Source: Mesorhizobium loti
GTDB taxonomy: Bacteria > Pseudomonadota > Alphaproteobacteria > Rhizobiales > Rhizobiaceae
Assembly (NCBI GenBank): GCA_014189435.1
Contig: CP050293.1
Coordinates: 1,803,001 to 1,867,000 of the forward strand
DNA: 64,000 nt
Direction: 5' to 3'
Part shown: positions 7,074 to 33,195 of the stretch, in pieces
Numbering within the stretch: the first letter of the stretch is position 1
Layout of the letters: each line of letters starts with the position of its first letter
The notes under the pieces: model-generated
Database searches by the model: none
The model's input: the letters and a program-made list of their open reading frames with translations, nothing else
What the model was told of the DNA's origin: nothing
Program-made: the position numbers and the translations under genes

Positions 7074-7708
7074 AGGCCGGGCCTCGCTAGTGAATTGAGG
7101 GCGGCGGCGGTCATGGCGCTGCCGCCAAGCCGGCCGCGCACGATGGCGTAGGGAACGCCATAGGAATTCTCGGCCAGCGCGTCCTTGGATTCGGCAGCGC
7201 CGACGAAGCCGACCGGCATGCCGATGATGGCGGCAGGCTTCGGCGCGCCGTCGCGTAACTTCTCCAGCAGATAGAACAGTGCGGTCGGCGCATTGCCGAT
7301 GGCGACCACCGAACCGGCCATGCGCTCGCCCCACAGGTCGACCGCGGCGGCAGAGCGGGTGTTGCCGATTTGCCCAGCGATGTCGTGCGTGCGGGGGTCG
7401 CGCAAGGTGCAGATCACCTCATTGCCGGCCGGAAGCCTGGCGCGGGTGACGCCATGCGAGACCATTTCCGCGTCGCAGAAAATCGGCGCGCCGGCGGCCA
7501 AAGCGGTGCGCGCGGCGGCAACGAAATCGCTGGAGAAGACAAAATGGCTTGATGCTTCGACCTGTCCGCAGGCATGGATCATGCGGATGGCGACATCGGC
7601 CTCGGCGTCCGTGAAGCGCGACAGATCGGCCTCGGCGCGGATGATGGCGAAGGAGCGCTCGTAGATCGCCGTGCCGTCATGGATATAGTCGTAGGCGGCC
7701 ATGCTCAT
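7070..7708 (-). CDS. cobH: Precorrin-8X methylmutase
   Basis: Moves the C11 methyl to C12, making hydrogenobyrinic acid. 212 aa, normal length. The catalytic-histidine region RMIHACGQVE is present near residues 42-51, together with the conserved GNAPTALF and PVGFVGAAESK segments. The ATG at 7708 overlaps the stop of cobG (ATGA), and its own stop overlaps the cobI GTG. It is intact even though cobG just upstream is interrupted. Confidence 0.95.
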   Translation of the reverse strand: MSMAAYDYIHDGTAIYERSFAIIRAEADLSRFTDAEADVAIRMIHACGQVEASSHFVFSSDFVAAARTALAAGAPIFCDAEMVSHGVTRARLPAGNEVICTLRDPRTHDIAGQIGNTRSAAAVDLWGERMAGSVVAIGNAPTALFYLLEKLRDGAPKPAAIIGMPVGFVGAAESKDALAENSYGVPYAIVRGRLGGSAMTAAALNSLARPGL

Positions 7709-9219
7709 TTCCGTTTTTCAGTTTGGGCCTGTCGGTAAGCCTCGGCGACACCGGCCGGCCCGAGCCTTGTCAGGCAGGCCGCGGCAGTCTCGCCTTGATA
7801 TCGTGTGCTGCGGATCATCGCCGCGACGCGACCGATGCCGCGCGCGGCGTCATAGCCCGGCCTGTAGCCGGCAGGAAGGGCCTTTGCCGTCGCGTTCACG
7901 ACAAGTCCGGCTCCGTTTTCGCCGCCGACGATCGTCAGCGCCGCCGGGCCGGGATGCGCGCAGCCCTTGGCGCAGCCTGAAATGTGCAGCGTGAAGTCGA
8001 GGATGTCAGCTGTTTCAGCGGCAATCGTCTCGGCGATGTCACGGGTGGCGATGCGGCCGGAGGCGCAGGCTGGTGTGCCCGGGCAAGCGGCAATGCGCGT
8101 GCGCGGGTCGGTGGGGGCGGTGACGAAGCCGAGGGTGGCTGCGGTGCGCTGAAGCGGGGGGTTGGCGGCGGTTGGTTGACCGAGGAAAAGCAAGGCGCGG
8201 CCCGGGGCGAGGCGGATTTCGGCTGTGCCGAGGGCGAGGGCGCTTTGGGTGAGGGCGATGATTTTGTCGGCCGGTATGCTGCCGTAGGGGGAGGGCAATG
8301 CCGAGGGCGATGTAGGCGTTGAGGTTGAAAAGGCCAATTGGCCGGCGATTGCGCTCTACGGCGCCCCCCTCTGTCCTGCCGGACATCTCCCCCACGAGGG
8401 GGGAGATTGGCAGGTTCGGCGCCGGCTTTCCCCCTTCAACCGTGGAAATTGGCGAAGGCGGGCGTGAATGAGCAATCTCCCCCTCGTGGGGGAGATGTCC
8501 GGTAGGACAGAGGGGGGCGCCACAGAATGCCAACCTGCGAGAGATATCAATTGCCTCTCCGACAAATCCCGCGTGTGCGCTTCGCGGCCTTTTTCAGCAA
8601 CCATCCTGAGTGCAGCGACGGCTATGTCTCTCGCGGCATCCGCATCGACCTTTGCCAAAACCTTCGCGTTTTGGCCGTCGCCGGCAACCGATACTCTCCA
8701 AACGATGTCGTTGTCGGCTCGCACCGCCTTCAGCCTGACATCGGCCGTCACCGCATCCATCGTCAACTGCCCGCCGCCATCGACAATCACGGAAACCTTC
8801 GGCCCCAGCCGTTGCGTCAGCCCAGCCTCTTCAACCGCTGCCCTGATCCGCTCCGCCAGTGGCCGGGGATCGGCAATCTCTTGCGGGTCGATGCCGGCCA
8901 GCGGCCCGGTCTCGACCGGCACGCCGGTACGCACCGCGATGCCCAGCGCATCGACCTCCGCCGCCAGCAGCGCAGCACTTTGCGCCGTCAGCCCGCGTAT
9001 CTGCAAACTGCCGCGCGCCGTCACTTCCATAATGCCGTTGCCGTGCCGCAAGGCGGACTCAGCGAGTCGGATCAAAAGCTTCGGCGACAATCCTCCAGAA
9101 GGCCGGCCTCCAGAAGATGGGCTTCCCGCGACCGGGTTGAGCCGCACCAGCAGGCCGTCGCCGGTTTGCATCGGCGCCGACAGGGCCGGACAAGCGCCGC
9201 GGCGCGAGAAGGCGTTCAT
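7705..9219 (-). pseudogene. cobG: Precorrin-3B synthase CobG, interrupted by a palindromic element and frameshifted as written
   Basis: CobG is the O2-dependent monooxygenase of the aerobic B12 pathway, related to sulfite/nitrite reductases. The N-terminal half (9219 to about 8522) reads normally to LISLAGWHSV. A 162-bp palindromic element (8360-8521) then intervenes, and the frame meets TAG at 8356-8358. The gene resumes as VERNRRPIGLFNLN one frame over, and a five-C run (plus-strand G at 8287-8291; four expected) shifts it again into the C-terminal part. The Fe-S/siroheme cysteines CPGTPAC and CAKGC are kept. One extra base in the C5 run at 8479-8483 and one less at 8287-8291 would give a single 504-codon reading frame, about 449 aa without the insert, which is normal for CobG. 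It may be a true pseudogene or an intact gene with sequencing errors. Confidence 0.85.
8360..8521. repeat. MITE-like palindromic element inside cobG
   Basis: 162-bp element bounded by GGCGCC on both sides, with long imperfect terminal inverted repeats (GGCGCCCCCCTCTGTCC, then CCGGACATCTCCCCC, then a stem with CACGAGG). Flanks read CTCTAC before and ACAGAATG after, consistent with a 2-bp target duplication (AC). Removing element plus duplication restores the CobG peptide AGWHSVERNRRPIG. Insert length is 164 with the duplication, which is not a multiple of three. Related to the element in cobN. It encodes no protein of its own. Confidence 0.92.
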
Positions 9220-12200
9220 GCGGCCACCCCAAGTGCTTCTGCTTCGGCAATCAGGGCCGTCAAATCGTCGTCGATGGAATTGCGCAGGGGATGCCAGAGG
9301 CCACGCCGGCGCGCTGACAGCAAACGCTCGGCGATGACTTTGGCAGCGGCGGGGTTTTCGCGCAGGATGAAGGCCCGGACCATGGGATCGCCGAGATAAG
9401 CGTCATGCACCGCCTCGATCAACGTGCCCGATATGGCATGCGTGGTTTCGGCAAAGCCGACCAGCCGGTCGACGGTTTCGGCGAATTCCGAGGCGCCGCG
9501 CGGGCCGTGGCGCATTTGCCCTGATATGAAGCGCGGATTGACGGCGCGAGCACGCACGACGCGCGATACGGCCTCGCTGACCGAGCGCGGCTTCGGCTTT
9601 TGCGGGTCCGTGGTGTCGAGCACGATGACGTCGGCATTCCTGCCGAGCGCCGCAAGTGCTGCGGAAAAGCCGCCGATGAAGGCGACGTCGGCGGAGCCTT
9701 CGAGAATGTCGCGGCCGGGGTCGTCGCCGGTGTGGACGAGAAGATCAGCCTCGGCGATGCGGGTTTCGAACGCGCCGGGCGCCGAGATGCCTTCGCCCTC
9801 CGCGCCGCCATAGGCATGCGATGTGGCGTCGAGATAGGCGCGGCCGATCTCTTCGCGCACCGCCCAGTCGCCGGAGGACATGAGATCCTCGACGCCGGCG
9901 CCGTACGTGCCGGGCGAGGTGCCGAAGATGCGCGGGCTGATCTTGCCGTCAGCGCGGGTTTTGGCCGCGAGCGGGTTTTCCGAATCGTCCTCGTCGCGGG
10001 CGGCAACGGCGTTGGCTGCGGCATCGATCAGCGCGATCTGGGTTGGGAACATGTCGCGGAACAGGCCTGATATGCGCCAGGTGACATCGACGCGCGGGCG
10101 GCCGAGCGTGGCCGGAGGCAGGACTTCGATGCCGATGATGCGGCCGGTCGCCGAATCCCATTGCGGCCGGCAGCCCATCAGCGCCAGGCCTTGAGCGATC
10201 TCCTCGCCGCCGGTGCGCAGCGATGCCGAGCCCCAGAGATCGATGACCAGCGAGCGCGGCCAGTCGCCATGCGATTGCATGTAGCCGCGCACGACCTCTT
10301 CCGCTGCCGCCTTGCCCAGATCATAGGCGGTCGGCGTCGGCATGGTGCGCGGGTCGGATGTGAACAAATTGCGGCCGGTGGGCAGAACGTCGGATCGGCC
10401 GCGCGCGGGCGCGCCGGCCGGACCGGCCTTGACGTGGCGGCCATCGAGCGCGGCGAGCAGCGCCGTCTTCTCAGCTTCAGCGCTTTGTCGCCGCATGGCG
10501 TCAGGCTCATCCTCCGGAGCGCGGCCATAGATATGCAGCCCGTCCTTGATGGCAAAATCCTTGAGGTCGCAGAGCCAGGCGTCGATGCGGCGCAGCGCCT
10601 CGTCCGGCGCGTCGGTCCTGGCAACGCCGGCTTCGGTGGCGAGGCCGGTCTTCTGCGCGGTGTCGACGATCAGCTTGGCCAGGCGGTCGCGGCGGCGACG
10701 GTCGAGCCCGTCGGCCTGGGCGTATTCGTCGACCAGCCGCTCGAGTCTGTGCTGATCCTCATCCAACCCGGCGCCGGTCAGCGGCGGCGGCAAATGGCCA
10801 AGCGTGACAGCGGCAATGCGGCGCTTGGCCTGTGCAGCCTCGCCTGGGTTGGAGACGATGAAGGGATAGATGACGGGCAGGAGACCGGTGACGATCTCGG
10901 GAAAGCAGTTTTGCGACAGCGCAACGGTTTTGCCGGGCAGCCATTCCAGCGTGCCATGCGCCCCGACATGGACAAGCGCGTGGACGCCGAGCGATTTGCG
11001 CAGCCACAGGCCAAAGGCGAGCAATGCATGGCGCGGGGGGAGCGTCGGATCGTGGTAATCGGCGCGGCGGTCGGCGGAGCGGCCGCGATCGGGGGCGAGT
11101 GCGACGGTGATGTTGCCGAAGGTGGCGGCGCGGAAGGGGAAGTGTTGTTTGCTTGATAGCGAAGGTTGGCGCGAGGCGCCCCCTCTGTCCTGCCGGACAT
11201 CTCCCCCACAGGTGGGGAGATTGCGCCCTTATCTCCGCTTTCGCCAATCTCCAACGATGCGAGAGGGGGCGAAGCGCTGAAGCTGCCAATCTCCCCACCT
11301 GTGGGGGAGATGTCCGGCAGGACAGAGGGGGCGCCTCGCGCAAACCTGTGTCATCTTCCGCCTTCCCCCAAGCAGCTTCTACCGCAGCTAGTGCTGCTGT
11401 CGGCAACTCTTTCGATAAGGCGAGATAGTCCTCCAGCCCCAGCCCATCACTGCTACGCTCCAGCAAATTCAATAATTCTCGCGGCGTCTCCGGAATCCCC
11501 TCAACGCCATAGCCCTGTCCCTTGAGGTCCTGCAGCATGGCGAGCACGCTGGACGGCACATCCAAGCCCACGGCGTAGCCTGTGCGGCCGGGGGCGCTGG
11601 GGTAATCCGGGATCAGGATGGCCAGCTTACGCTCGGCGCGGGGCGTCTCCTGCAGACGGATGAAGGCCGCGACGCGGTCGGCCACCTGCGCTACACGATC
11701 GGGCTCCGGCCGGTTGGCGAAGGCGCGGTGGCCGAGCGCCGGATCGGTCTCGCTCTCGCCCTTGAAGGAAATGGCGCCGGCCAGGATGCGGCCGTCGAGC
11801 TCGGGCAGCACGACATGCATGGCGAGGTCGGCGGGCGCCAGGCCGCGCTGGTTTTTTTCCCAGACGTCGCGGCGGGTGGTGGCGACGATGACCTGGAAGA
11901 CGGGCACGCCGGCGCGGTCGAACAGGGTTTCAATGCCGGGTTCGGCGCCGGACGCGAAAGCAGTCGCGGTGATGATGGCGGCGGGTTTCAGCGTGGCGAG
12001 CGCCGTTTGCACGAAGGCCAGGGACGCCGGATCCTTGAGGCTGGAGACGAAGATGGGGACCGGGTTGATGCCACGCTGGCTGAGCGCTTCAAAAAGCGCG
12101 TCAATGGGCGCGACATCGACGGCCAGCAGCATCGAGCGGTAGAACAGGATGGGGATGATGGGGACGCCGAGGTTGTCAGGAACGCGGACGTTTGAAAGGT

Positions 12201-12771
12201 CCGGCCTTTCTACGACACCGCGGCCCGGCTCGTAGTAGCCCGCCTTCGGTACAGCTACCGGATCAACAACGTCCGCATCCTGTCCCGCCAGCCGCGCCAA
12301 CCTCCGCATCAGCGCGCTCATATTCACCGGGCCGCCCTCGCGAAAATAATCAAGCAGGCCGTCCAGCTCCTCGCGGGGCAGCGTCGAGGCTTCGATCAGG
12401 CGCAGGTCCTCGTCGCGGCATTCGCCGGGCAGCAGCGCCAGTTTTATGCCGCGTGCGCGGGCGGTCGAGGCGAGCTGGTCGCAGCCGTAGCGCCACCAGT
12501 CGTAGCCGCCGAGGATGCGCACGAGGATGATCTTGGCGTGACGGGCGACGCTGTCGACCCAGAGGTCGACCGACATGGGGTGGCGCAGATCGCGAAGCGC
12601 CGCCAGCCGCATCGAGGGCAGGCGGCCGGCGTCGGCCTTCCATGCCGCCGCCAGTCCGGCGAGATCGCTGTCGGTGAAGGACAGGGCCACGATATCCGCC
12701 GGCGTCTGCCGCAGATCGACCGGCTCGGCGAGGTCGTCGAGCGAGGCGGATGTCGTGGTGAGGATGTGCAT
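9216..12771 (-). pseudogene. cobN: Cobaltochelatase large subunit CobN, interrupted by a palindromic element and frameshifted as written
   Basis: CobN is the large, ATP-dependent cobalt-inserting subunit that works with CobS and CobT (not in this window) on hydrogenobyrinic acid a,c-diamide. The N-terminal part (12771 to about 11349) is in one frame and ends with AWGKAEDDTGLR. The C-terminal part resumes as HFPFRAATFGN in a different frame (about 11135 down to 9216) and carries the conserved VHVGAHGTLEWLPGK and DLWGSASLRTGGEEIAQG. Between them lies a copy of the element also found in cobG. Its runs of five C (11179-11183) and five G (11327-11331) would each need one more base for the whole gene to read through, giving 1185 aa. 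The start ATG is 18 bp after the cobW stop and its stop overlaps the cobG ATG. Confidence 0.88.
11164..11346. repeat. MITE-like palindromic element inside cobN
   Basis: The core runs from 11175 to 11335 (161 bp) between GGCGCC ends and has the same arms as the cobG copy (CCCCCTCTGTCCTGCCGGA, CATCTCCCCCACAGGTGGG). Here the inverted symmetry continues about 12 bp beyond the core (AGGTTGGCGCGA against AGGTTTGCGCGA, 11 of 12 matching). There is no clear target duplication. The two copies share their arms but differ in the central 60-70 bp. Confidence 0.88.
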
Positions 12772-32374: not shown

Positions 32375-33195
32375 ATGGGATTTCGGCTGGCTCCAACCTC
32401 GGCGTCGGAAGGGTTCCGGCTCGAGGCGCATGACAGCGTCGGCTCCACCAATGCGCTGGCGCTGGATCACGCAAGGGCAGGCGACCCGGGCAAATTGTGG
32501 GTCGTTTCCAAGAAGCAGGAAAGCGGGCGTGGCCGGCGCGGCCGTGTCTGGGCGACGCCTGAAGGCAACCTCGCGGCGACGCTGCTTGTCATCACCAAGG
32601 CAGAGCTTCGCCTTGCCGCGACGCTGGGCTTCGTCGCAGGACTGGCGCTGGCCGATGCGCTCGACGCCGTGGTGCCGAAGGGCCGGATCGCCATCGGCCT
32701 CGACGGCGCCAGTGAGGAAAAAACCGTTTCGAGCTGAAATGGCCGAATGACGTGCTTGCCTCCGGCGCCAAGCTGGCCGGCATCCTTCTGGAGTCGGCCA
32801 TCCTGGAAGGCGGCCGTTTCGCGGTGGCGGTCGGCATCGGCGTCAATGTGGTGGCATACCCCGAGGATTTGCCTTATCCCGCAACATCACTCGGCGCGCT
32901 GGGTGCGGCATGCGACGCGGAAACACTATTCCTGGCGCTGTCGGATGCCTGGAGCGAGAATGCAAGGGTGTGGGATGAGGGGCGCGGACTTGCCGCCGTC
33001 AGGCGACGGTGGTTGGCTCGCGCGGCGGGGCTCGGCGGCGAGGTTGCTGTCAGGATTGACGGTAATGTGGTGCGTGGGGTGTTTGAAACCATTGACGAAG
33101 ACTGCCGTTTCGTGATCCGCGACGATGAAGGTTCGGTTCTGACGATCGCCGCCGGCGACGTGCATTTCGGCGCGGTCGCTTCGGCCAGAGCCTAG
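32375..33195 (+). pseudogene. birA: Biotin--[acetyl-CoA-carboxylase] ligase BirA, frameshifted at a poly-A run
   Basis: Attaches biotin to biotin-dependent carboxylases. No DNA-binding domain is visible, so this is the monofunctional type. The first part reads to SEEKTVSS and stops at 32737; the catalytic motif then continues in another frame as RFELKWPNDVLASGAKLAGI. The break is at a run of six A (about 32719-32724); one more A gives a continuous 273-aa enzyme with KQESGRGRRGRVW (biotin-binding loop) and KWPNDV. BirA is normally essential, so a sequencing deletion is more likely than true loss. Downstream of nuoN by 5 bp. Confidence 0.85.

What the first reader, a model, noticed from the sequence alone, without database searches (positions are those of the whole stretch)
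8360..11346. Two cobalamin genes carry the same palindromic element, apparently in the same translation phase
The copies in cobG and cobN share arms but not centres. Read in the phase used by cobG, both would encode a peptide that starts APPSVLPDISPT(R/G)GEI and ends VGEMSGRTEGGA, without stop codons, about 55 residues. As written each gene is frameshifted, but the corrections needed are only one-base changes in runs of C or G: 8479-8483 for the cobG element, 11179-11183 and 11327-11331 for the cobN element. With these changes (plus the separate 8287-8291 run in cobG) the genes total 505 and 1186 codons. This would resemble the Rickettsia palindromic elements, which insert in frame into protein genes. 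The alternative is that both genes are truly inactivated by MITE-like insertions, which would abolish the aerobic CobG and CobN steps.
Basis: partly seen in the sequence, partly recalled or inferred. Interest (0 to 1): 0.85.

Follow-up and report, generated by a model that had tools for sequence, protein, structure and literature searches.

The report
Flipping palindromes inside Mesorhizobium enzyme genes
A repeated hairpin DNA element sits inside two vitamin B12 genes of the soil bacterium Mesorhizobium and appears to be kept as an extra protein loop that grows, shrinks and even flips its middle without breaking the gene.

Summary
Two copies of one hairpin repeat lie in cobG (8355-8526) and cobN (11163-11347), and both genes are frameshifted as written. 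All 85 full cobG copies outside this genome have core length 2 mod 3 and one phase, giving APPSVLPDIS...GEMSGRTEGG. The 50 full copies fetched from this genome have mixed lengths (18/18/14). The same peptide interrupts an ABC-transporter ATPase in 20 of 34 same-genus genomes with a match. So this is a protein-coding palindrome that works like the Rickettsia palindromic elements, in a free-living GC-rich genus. New behaviours: the two arms co-vary (at least 21 paired switches at one cobG position); copies shrink by in-frame steps; the loop occurs in both orientations at one site (cobG 35:38, cobN 27:29; at least 21 and 16 changes on the tree), also among complete genomes. The window strain's own frameshifts are more likely assembly errors than gene loss, because single-copy birA is also split, but this is unproven. 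Translation and the flipping mechanism are inferred.

The parts
7705..9219 (-). cobG (precorrin-3B synthase), reading broken as written; N half 8536-9219, C half within 7705-8337
   Evidence: the N half matches 47 of 61 genomes searched (own genome included); both halves lie in one open frame in 29 of 29 relatives
8355..8526 (-). palindromic element in cobG: arms 8355-8402 and 8479-8526, core (GTCC...GGAC) 8373-8508, 136 nt; centre in the class called forward
   Evidence: (single-strand fold -134 kcal/mol)
9216..12771 (-). cobN (cobaltochelatase large subunit), frame broken as written
   Evidence: a relative's CobN matches solved CobN chains 9uk9 and 7c6o
11163..11347 (-). palindromic element in cobN: arms 11163-11223 and 11287-11347, core 11187-11323, 137 nt; centre in the class called reverse
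   Evidence: (fold -167 kcal/mol)
32444..32847 (+). birA (biotin protein ligase domain) split over two frames: the check used for assembly quality
   Evidence: PF03099 model positions 7-83 and 87-133 lie in different frames; the only two matches in the genome at E <= 0.001

Best explanation
A dispersed palindromic repeat of Mesorhizobium (probably of the RIME kind of Rhizobiaceae) inserted long ago into DNA coding for loops between conserved blocks of CobG and CobN. Because its length and phase leave an open frame, it is translated as an extra, probably disordered, peptide and tolerated. At the DNA level it keeps living as a hairpin: the arms are kept alike, the loop is turned round in place, and slippage deletes nested parts of it. 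Selection on the host enzyme lets only frame-keeping versions survive. In the window strain the genes look broken, most likely because the assembly lost or gained single bases in homopolymer runs. Shown here: conservation in frame, length rule, phase, arm co-variation, both loop orientations, in-frame shrinkage. Inferred: translation, disorder, the mechanism of flipping and arm correction, assembly error.
For: In frame in 116 of 116 other cobG and 105 of 109 other cobN loci. Core 2 mod 3 in 85 of 85 other cobG full copies, against 18/18/14 among the 50 full copies fetched from this genome. On the tree 84 of 85 cobG rows (all but the window genome) and 73 of 77 cobN rows are in frame, although the length between fixed flanking anchors changes at least 54 times in the 77 cobG rows and 42 times in the 61 cobN rows that could be measured. 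The element, full or shrunken, is in 79 of 80 rows of one Mesorhizobium clade, support 98*. Arms apart from one variable tetranucleotide are nearly invariant (mean pairwise difference 0.01-0.05) beside flanks at 0.36-0.57, with no marked third-position excess. Position 21 pairs in 58 of 62 cobG rows with at least 21 paired switches. The centre is in both orientations, including a cobN pair identical at 65 of 65 bases when reversed with flanks 92.4% alike; genomes in one or two contigs show both. The peptide is found in other proteins: 493 of 545 candidates at E<=10 for the used phase, against 2 of 118, both marginal, for another phase. ABC ATPase insert in 20 of 34 genomes with a match.
Against: No proteomics or translation data. 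The CobG model has low confidence (mean pLDDT 55.6), so disorder of the insert (222-280, pLDDT under 50) is weak evidence. Orthologues are not independent, 15 of 30 unnamed cobG loci recur identically among the named ones, and exchange of cob genes between species would inflate change counts. Orientation in draft assemblies could be an assembler choice. Openness of the antisense frame, which I first took as special, is not: ordinary cobG coding windows are open there at 92%. L089 (M. amorphae CCNWGS0123) also has a frameshifted cobN copy with core 136, so real or artefactual frameshifts do occur elsewhere.
Confidence: 0.85

Rival explanations
1. In the window strain both genes are truly inactivated: the palindrome makes runs that slip, and the strain has lost aerobic B12 synthesis.
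For: cobG carries two separate frame changes and cobN more than one. The assembly is nearly closed, 3 contigs. 37 of 50 full copies in the same assembly have runs of 6 and 6, so no systematic miscall of that run is seen.
Against: The coding sequence around the elements is not otherwise decayed: against G032 the N half of CobG is 93% identical, the CobN piece before the element 90% and the part after it 94.5%. Another frameshift in the window splits birA, a gene essential by established knowledge and the only such locus found in the genome.
Confidence: 0.28
2. The hairpin is kept for a function in the mRNA, for example a translation pause between domains or a processing site.
For: Very stable folds (-134 and -167 kcal/mol) placed between conserved blocks. 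A second, different hairpin repeat (-106 to -126 kcal/mol in the four loci folded) sits in frame at the same CobN site in 5 loci from 3 genomes, and the 4 genomes searched hold 29 to 86 matching pieces of it.
Against: The cobG element is shrunken or altered in 17 of 85 tree rows and absent in 6, and cobN lacks a full copy in 42 of 105 in-frame loci. The gene stays open without it in those species.
Confidence: 0.1
3. The element is removed after transcription or skipped by the ribosome, so that no peptide is made.
For: None direct; the hairpin is strong enough to be a processing target.
Against: Frame and openness would then be free to drift, yet 85 of 85 other full cobG cores are 2 mod 3 and 72 of 72 unique ones are open in the gene's frame.
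Confidence: 0.03
4. The two loop orientations are an artefact of short-read assembly of a hairpin, or replacement by other copies rather than inversion in place.
For: Arms of 45-60 nt can confuse small k-mers (general knowledge). Many genus genomes hold tens of exact arms as possible donors. Core length also toggles, 23 changes in cobG.
Against: Genomes in one or two contigs show both orientations at cobG: G034 forward, M. ciceri WSM1271 and G032 reverse, with reversed-centre identity 0.88 and 0.78 to G034. Identical or near-identical centres appear reversed at the same site, which replacement by an unrelated copy would not give.
Confidence: 0.15

Closest known systems
Rickettsia palindromic elements (RPE; Ogata 2000 and 2002, cited in PMC10969869, passages read)
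   Same: Palindromes of about 150 bp, many copies, inserted in frame into unrelated protein genes with a conserved peptide.
   Different: Here a free-living, GC-rich genus; sequence relation untested; none of the 50 full copies fetched from this genome passed my test for an open coding frame on both sides, so intragenic copies are the minority; loop inversion and arm co-variation were not mentioned in the passages I read.
RIME, Rhizobium-specific intergenic mosaic elements (Osteras 1995; paper not held; mentioned in PMC2573895, passages read)
   Same: Rhizobial repeats; here too the ends look like interchangeable modules. Related sequence lies in 148 plasmid records, mostly Sinorhizobium and Rhizobium, with no annotated gene under the 30 best matches listed (that gene table is incomplete).
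   Different: RIMEs are described as intergenic; here copies are kept inside reading frames. The RIME sequence itself was not available for comparison.
ERIC/RU elements fused to reading frames in enterobacteria and QMITEs of Coxiella (PMC2759123, PMC5896051; passages read)
   Same: Small repeats read as part of proteins.
   Different: The passages read describe mostly small or hypothetical proteins or gene ends; here an internal insert in named enzymes is kept across a genus.
Small inversions of hairpin loops in chloroplast DNA (recalled, no call)
   Same: A loop between short inverted repeats turns round in place.
   Different: Recalled as mostly non-coding; here the loop is in frame inside an enzyme gene.

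Membership tests
Rickettsia palindromic elements | long palindrome of roughly 100-150 bp, many copies per genome | tested here: met
Rickettsia palindromic elements | in-frame insertion into unrelated protein genes | tested here: met
   CobG, CobN, ABC ATPase, in relatives of the window strain; single cases
Rickettsia palindromic elements | sequence homology to a named RPE family | not tested
   no RPE sequence was fetched; not filed as a member
RIME | sequence similarity to RIME1/RIME2 | tested here: inconclusive
   related repeats in Sinorhizobium and Rhizobium replicons, but RIME itself not in hand
RIME | intergenic location | tested here: inconclusive
   0 of 50 full copies in this genome sit in an open coding frame on both sides, but cobG, cobN and ABC copies of relatives do
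MITE | target-site duplication and terminal inverted repeats of a known transposase | tested here: inconclusive
   filled, shrunken and empty sites compared by eye show nested palindromic remnants, no clear duplication; transposase not sought
REP (GTAG/CGTC type) | 20-40 bp palindrome | tested here: not met
   unit is about 172-185 nt

The most novel reading that the evidence does not exclude
A protein-coding hairpin whose loop (65 or 83 nt in most copies) inverts in place again and again, so that CobG and CobN each carry one of two alternative linker peptides, written on opposite strands of the same DNA, without loss of frame. Inversion is tolerated because, in GC-rich coding DNA, the matching antisense frame is usually open. 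If both orientations exist within one strain, this would be switching of a piece of a metabolic enzyme.
Probability: 0.55. Interest if true: 0.85.

Novelty: new variant of a known kind. Interest (0 to 1): 0.72.

Why it matters
In-frame protein-coding palindromes have been presented as a peculiarity of Rickettsia (title of Ogata 2002, seen as a reference). Here the same outcome is found genus-wide in a large-genome, free-living soil bacterium, inside well-studied enzymes, one with solved relatives (CobN). That makes the old question of how a selfish palindrome enters proteins without killing them directly testable. The natural series of full, flipped, shrunken and empty orthologues is a ready-made experiment. 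It also warns annotators that such hairpins with G- and C-runs can make good genes look like pseudogenes.

Tried and rejected
Bidirectional openness as evidence of selection for flipping: reverse phase 0 is open in 63 of 72 cobG and 51 of 54 cobN copies, but ordinary cobG coding windows are open in that frame in 92% of 624 windows (these control windows were 96% open in their own frame, so a few are out of register). Rejected as evidence.

Stop avoidance as the cause of the phase: the three phases are about equally open in the 50 full copies of this genome (63, 61 and 62 of 100 strands).

An essential-gene case: IspE with the peptide (P0065, one 1,282-base metagenomic contig) was sought in 146 same-genus genomes. 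145 matched, with alignments starting at residues 138-154, after the insert, so the insert was not seen there. Treated as a single case.

A frameshift census of 264 kb against G032 was confounded by over-long start predictions and is not used, except for the DNA difference at 8287-8291 that it lists. One search flagged birA only through an antisense reading frame; the DNA alignment and the Pfam split carry the argument. One search did not flag cobG itself, and it also shows that most of the 36 orthologous frames compared are intact.

Length changes counted between alignment ends (62 and 53) were inflated by wobble of those ends, and were counted on in-frame rows only; I replaced them by counts between fixed anchors (54 and 42), which also measure open frames only.

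A first control search with the other phase (58 candidates, none at E<=10) used one arm and was unbalanced; it was repeated with both arms. Its length range differs from that and excludes most full-length CobN, so it would miss the phase-2 left arm of the second CobN site. Rfam matches are mainly microRNA families, all below their cut-offs, taken as chance matches to hairpins. The full/arm/none classes misplace a few rows with altered arms (L086, L115, L125, L138) and one with unread bases (L126); these count as shrunken or altered. My motif sorting mislabelled two proteins (P0091, P0096), which I moved by their listed name or Pfam domain. The copies fetched from this genome come from a capped list (first 100 of 180 arms); 37 half copies were not analysed further.
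Full report
WHAT IS THERE. The window is part of an 8.33-Mb genome (G000, 3 contigs) whose genus, by its named relatives, is Mesorhizobium. Two copies of one palindromic repeat lie in the cob cluster: arms 8355-8402/8479-8526 in cobG and 11163-11223/11287-11347 in cobN. Read as single strands they fold at -134 and -167 kcal/mol. The repeat is dispersed. With up to 3 mismatches its arm occurs 90 times on each strand, against 6 and 4 for the reversed control. An exact arm occurs in 34 of 37 same-genus genomes and in 0 of 24 genomes from other families of the order. More distant versions lie in 148 plasmid records, chiefly Sinorhizobium and Rhizobium, with no annotated gene under any of the 30 matches listed, and in no phage record at that sensitivity.

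THE GENES AS WRITTEN. The cobG frame ends after 287 codons and the cobN frame after 670. The second half of cobN is in another frame. The C half of cobG is back in the register of the N half, but out-of-frame sequence with a stop lies between.

RELATIVES. I took cobG from 30 loci (window genome included) and 80 named loci, cobN from 30 loci and from the same 80, plus seven outgroup or further genomes. 15 of the 30 unnamed cobG loci recur identically among the named ones. Of 117 cobG loci, all 116 outside this genome are in frame across the site. 85 of these have a full core, every one 2 mod 3 (lengths 134, 137, 140, 146, 152, 155, 161, 164); the other 31 are shrunken, altered or empty. Of 110 cobN loci, 105 are in frame. 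The five exceptions are this genome, L089 (core 136), L126 (unread bases), and L122 and L143, whose frame breaks lie outside the element. Among unique sequences outside this genome, 72 of 72 cobG cores and 54 of 55 cobN cores are 2 mod 3, and all 85 cobG and 65 cobN full-core loci outside this genome use one phase. The 50 full copies fetched from this genome, these two included, split 18/18/14 by length mod 3, and none of the 50 sits in an open frame with coding signal on both sides. So within this genome cobG and cobN are the only intragenic copies I identified, and the length rule belongs to the intragenic copies of the relatives.

OTHER HOST GENES. Searching 5.8 billion proteins with the 58-residue element peptide gave 493 of 545 candidates at E<=10; 120 were listed. 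By sequence motif, and for two rows by listed name or Pfam domain, they are 76 CobG, 33 ABC-transporter ATPases, 5 CobN and 6 others. The same kind of search with the peptide of another phase gave 2 of 118, both marginal. In the ABC ATPase the insert lies between the phosphate-binding loop and the Q-loop (sequences; motif names recalled). 34 of 37 same-genus genomes match; 20 align through the insert without a stop; 14, including this genome, match only after it. CobN has a second in-frame site near residue 198 in at least 7 loci, with its left arm in another phase. Against the solved CobN chain 9uk9, the element of one relative (L077, query residues 507-568) falls where the solved chain has 8 residues. 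At the second site the same protein has a different, repeat-like insert where the solved chain has 12 (one alignment).

AGE AND DECAY. On a tree of 85 rows (quick method, SH-aLRT support) the element, full or shrunken, is in 79 of 80 rows of one clade (98*). Shrunken or altered forms need 13 changes (at least 10 forced by starred branches), and all are in frame. 84 of 85 cobG rows and 73 of 77 cobN rows are in frame, although lengths between fixed anchors change at least 54 and 42 times in the 77 and 61 rows measured. Shrunken copies keep outer parts of the palindrome and lose the inside, as expected from slippage across a hairpin (inference). One outgroup (G013) has its own short hairpin in frame in the cobG linker. 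Five loci from three genomes carry a different hairpin repeat in frame at the CobN site, with related pieces elsewhere in the 4 genomes searched.

DNA-LEVEL LIFE. Apart from one variable tetranucleotide, arms differ by 0.01-0.05 per site between orthologues, beside flanks at 0.36-0.57, with little sign of codon position. Where arms vary they mostly vary together. Core position 21 pairs in 58 of 62 cobG rows with at least 21 paired switches on the tree, and in 44 of 47 cobN rows with at least 16. Left and right tetranucleotides match in 38 of 72 cobG and 27 of 55 cobN copies, where 8.8 and 9.7 are expected if independent. In the protein this appears as Thr-Val, Ser-Glu and Ala-Ala pairs in the two arms. 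The centre occurs in both directions: 35 and 38 of 73 unique cobG copies, 27 and 29 of 56 cobN copies (window genome included), none unassigned, with at least 21 and 16 changes on the tree. In cobN, L063 and L106 have centres identical at 65 of 65 bases when one is reversed, with flanks 92.4% alike; in cobG, L098 and L099 have reversed identity 0.92 with flanks 90.1%. Genomes in one or two contigs show both directions. The reverse frame is open in most copies, but no more than in ordinary cobG coding DNA (92% of 624 windows), so this explains tolerance, not selection.

THE WINDOW STRAIN. Another gene in the window, birA, has a one-base gap against G032, and its domain lies in two frames. It is the only such locus found in the genome. 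Biotin protein ligase is essential by established knowledge, so I read the window's frameshifts as probable assembly errors. The unusual (5,5) cobN copy, the fact that most copies show the usual runs, and a similar cobN frameshift in L089 keep real loss open.

MECHANISM. Most likely a neutral passenger: inserted in loops, translated, carried along, kept in frame by selection on the enzyme, while hairpin-driven processes (arm correction or conversion, inversion, slippage) rewrite it. A model of CobG puts the insert (222-280) at very low confidence, between a helix and a strand, but the whole model is weak (pLDDT 55.6, 24 sequences). No peptide evidence exists here.

KNOWN OR NEW. It works like the Rickettsia palindromic elements (PMC10969869, passages; PMC3733652, passages), and like in-frame MITE or ERIC fusions (PMC5896051 and PMC2759123, passages). 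It is not filed as an RPE because no sequence relation was tested. RIME membership is likely but unproven. My paper searches (listings only unless passages are named) showed me no report of this element in frame in Mesorhizobium, nor of inverting coding palindromes. The library lacks most subscription papers, and only the top rows of each search are listed.

Noticed in passing
window 32444-32847: birA (biotin protein ligase) is split over two frames by a one-base gap against G032; only locus of its family found in the genome.
   Followed up: yes
G000:C1 about 1,966,000-3,181,000 and contigs C2, C3: None of the exact arm matches listed for this genome falls in this 1.2-Mb stretch of the chromosome or on the two other contigs (nor any place); perhaps an integrated island and plasmids acquired without the repeat.
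   Followed up: no
L182, L184, L190, L203, L209, L211, L215, L217, L232, L233, L236, L238: Half-elements in the opposite, outward arrangement (right arm first, left arm starting 127-194 bases later) form a second configuration of the repeat.
   Followed up: no
L052, L054, L071, L079, L141 (cobN site): A different hairpin repeat (fold -106 to -126 kcal/mol in the four folded) sits in frame at the same CobN site; five loci from three genomes; related pieces are numerous in 4 genomes searched.
   Followed up: partly
L077 CobN residues 190-234 (L077:1375-4998): A repeat-like insert ending PPGPAGHPPLEGEGK, resembling the peptide of that second hairpin repeat, at the second CobN site.
   Followed up: no
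CobN near residue 198 in L067, L111, L114, L118, L128, L132, L143: Second in-frame insertion of the same repeat, left arm in another phase; a Rhizobium johnstonii CobN (P0029) carries the peptide in what looks like the same region.
   Followed up: partly
L247 (G013) cobG: A short hairpin of a variant stem sequence lies in frame in the cobG linker of a distant relative.
   Followed up: partly
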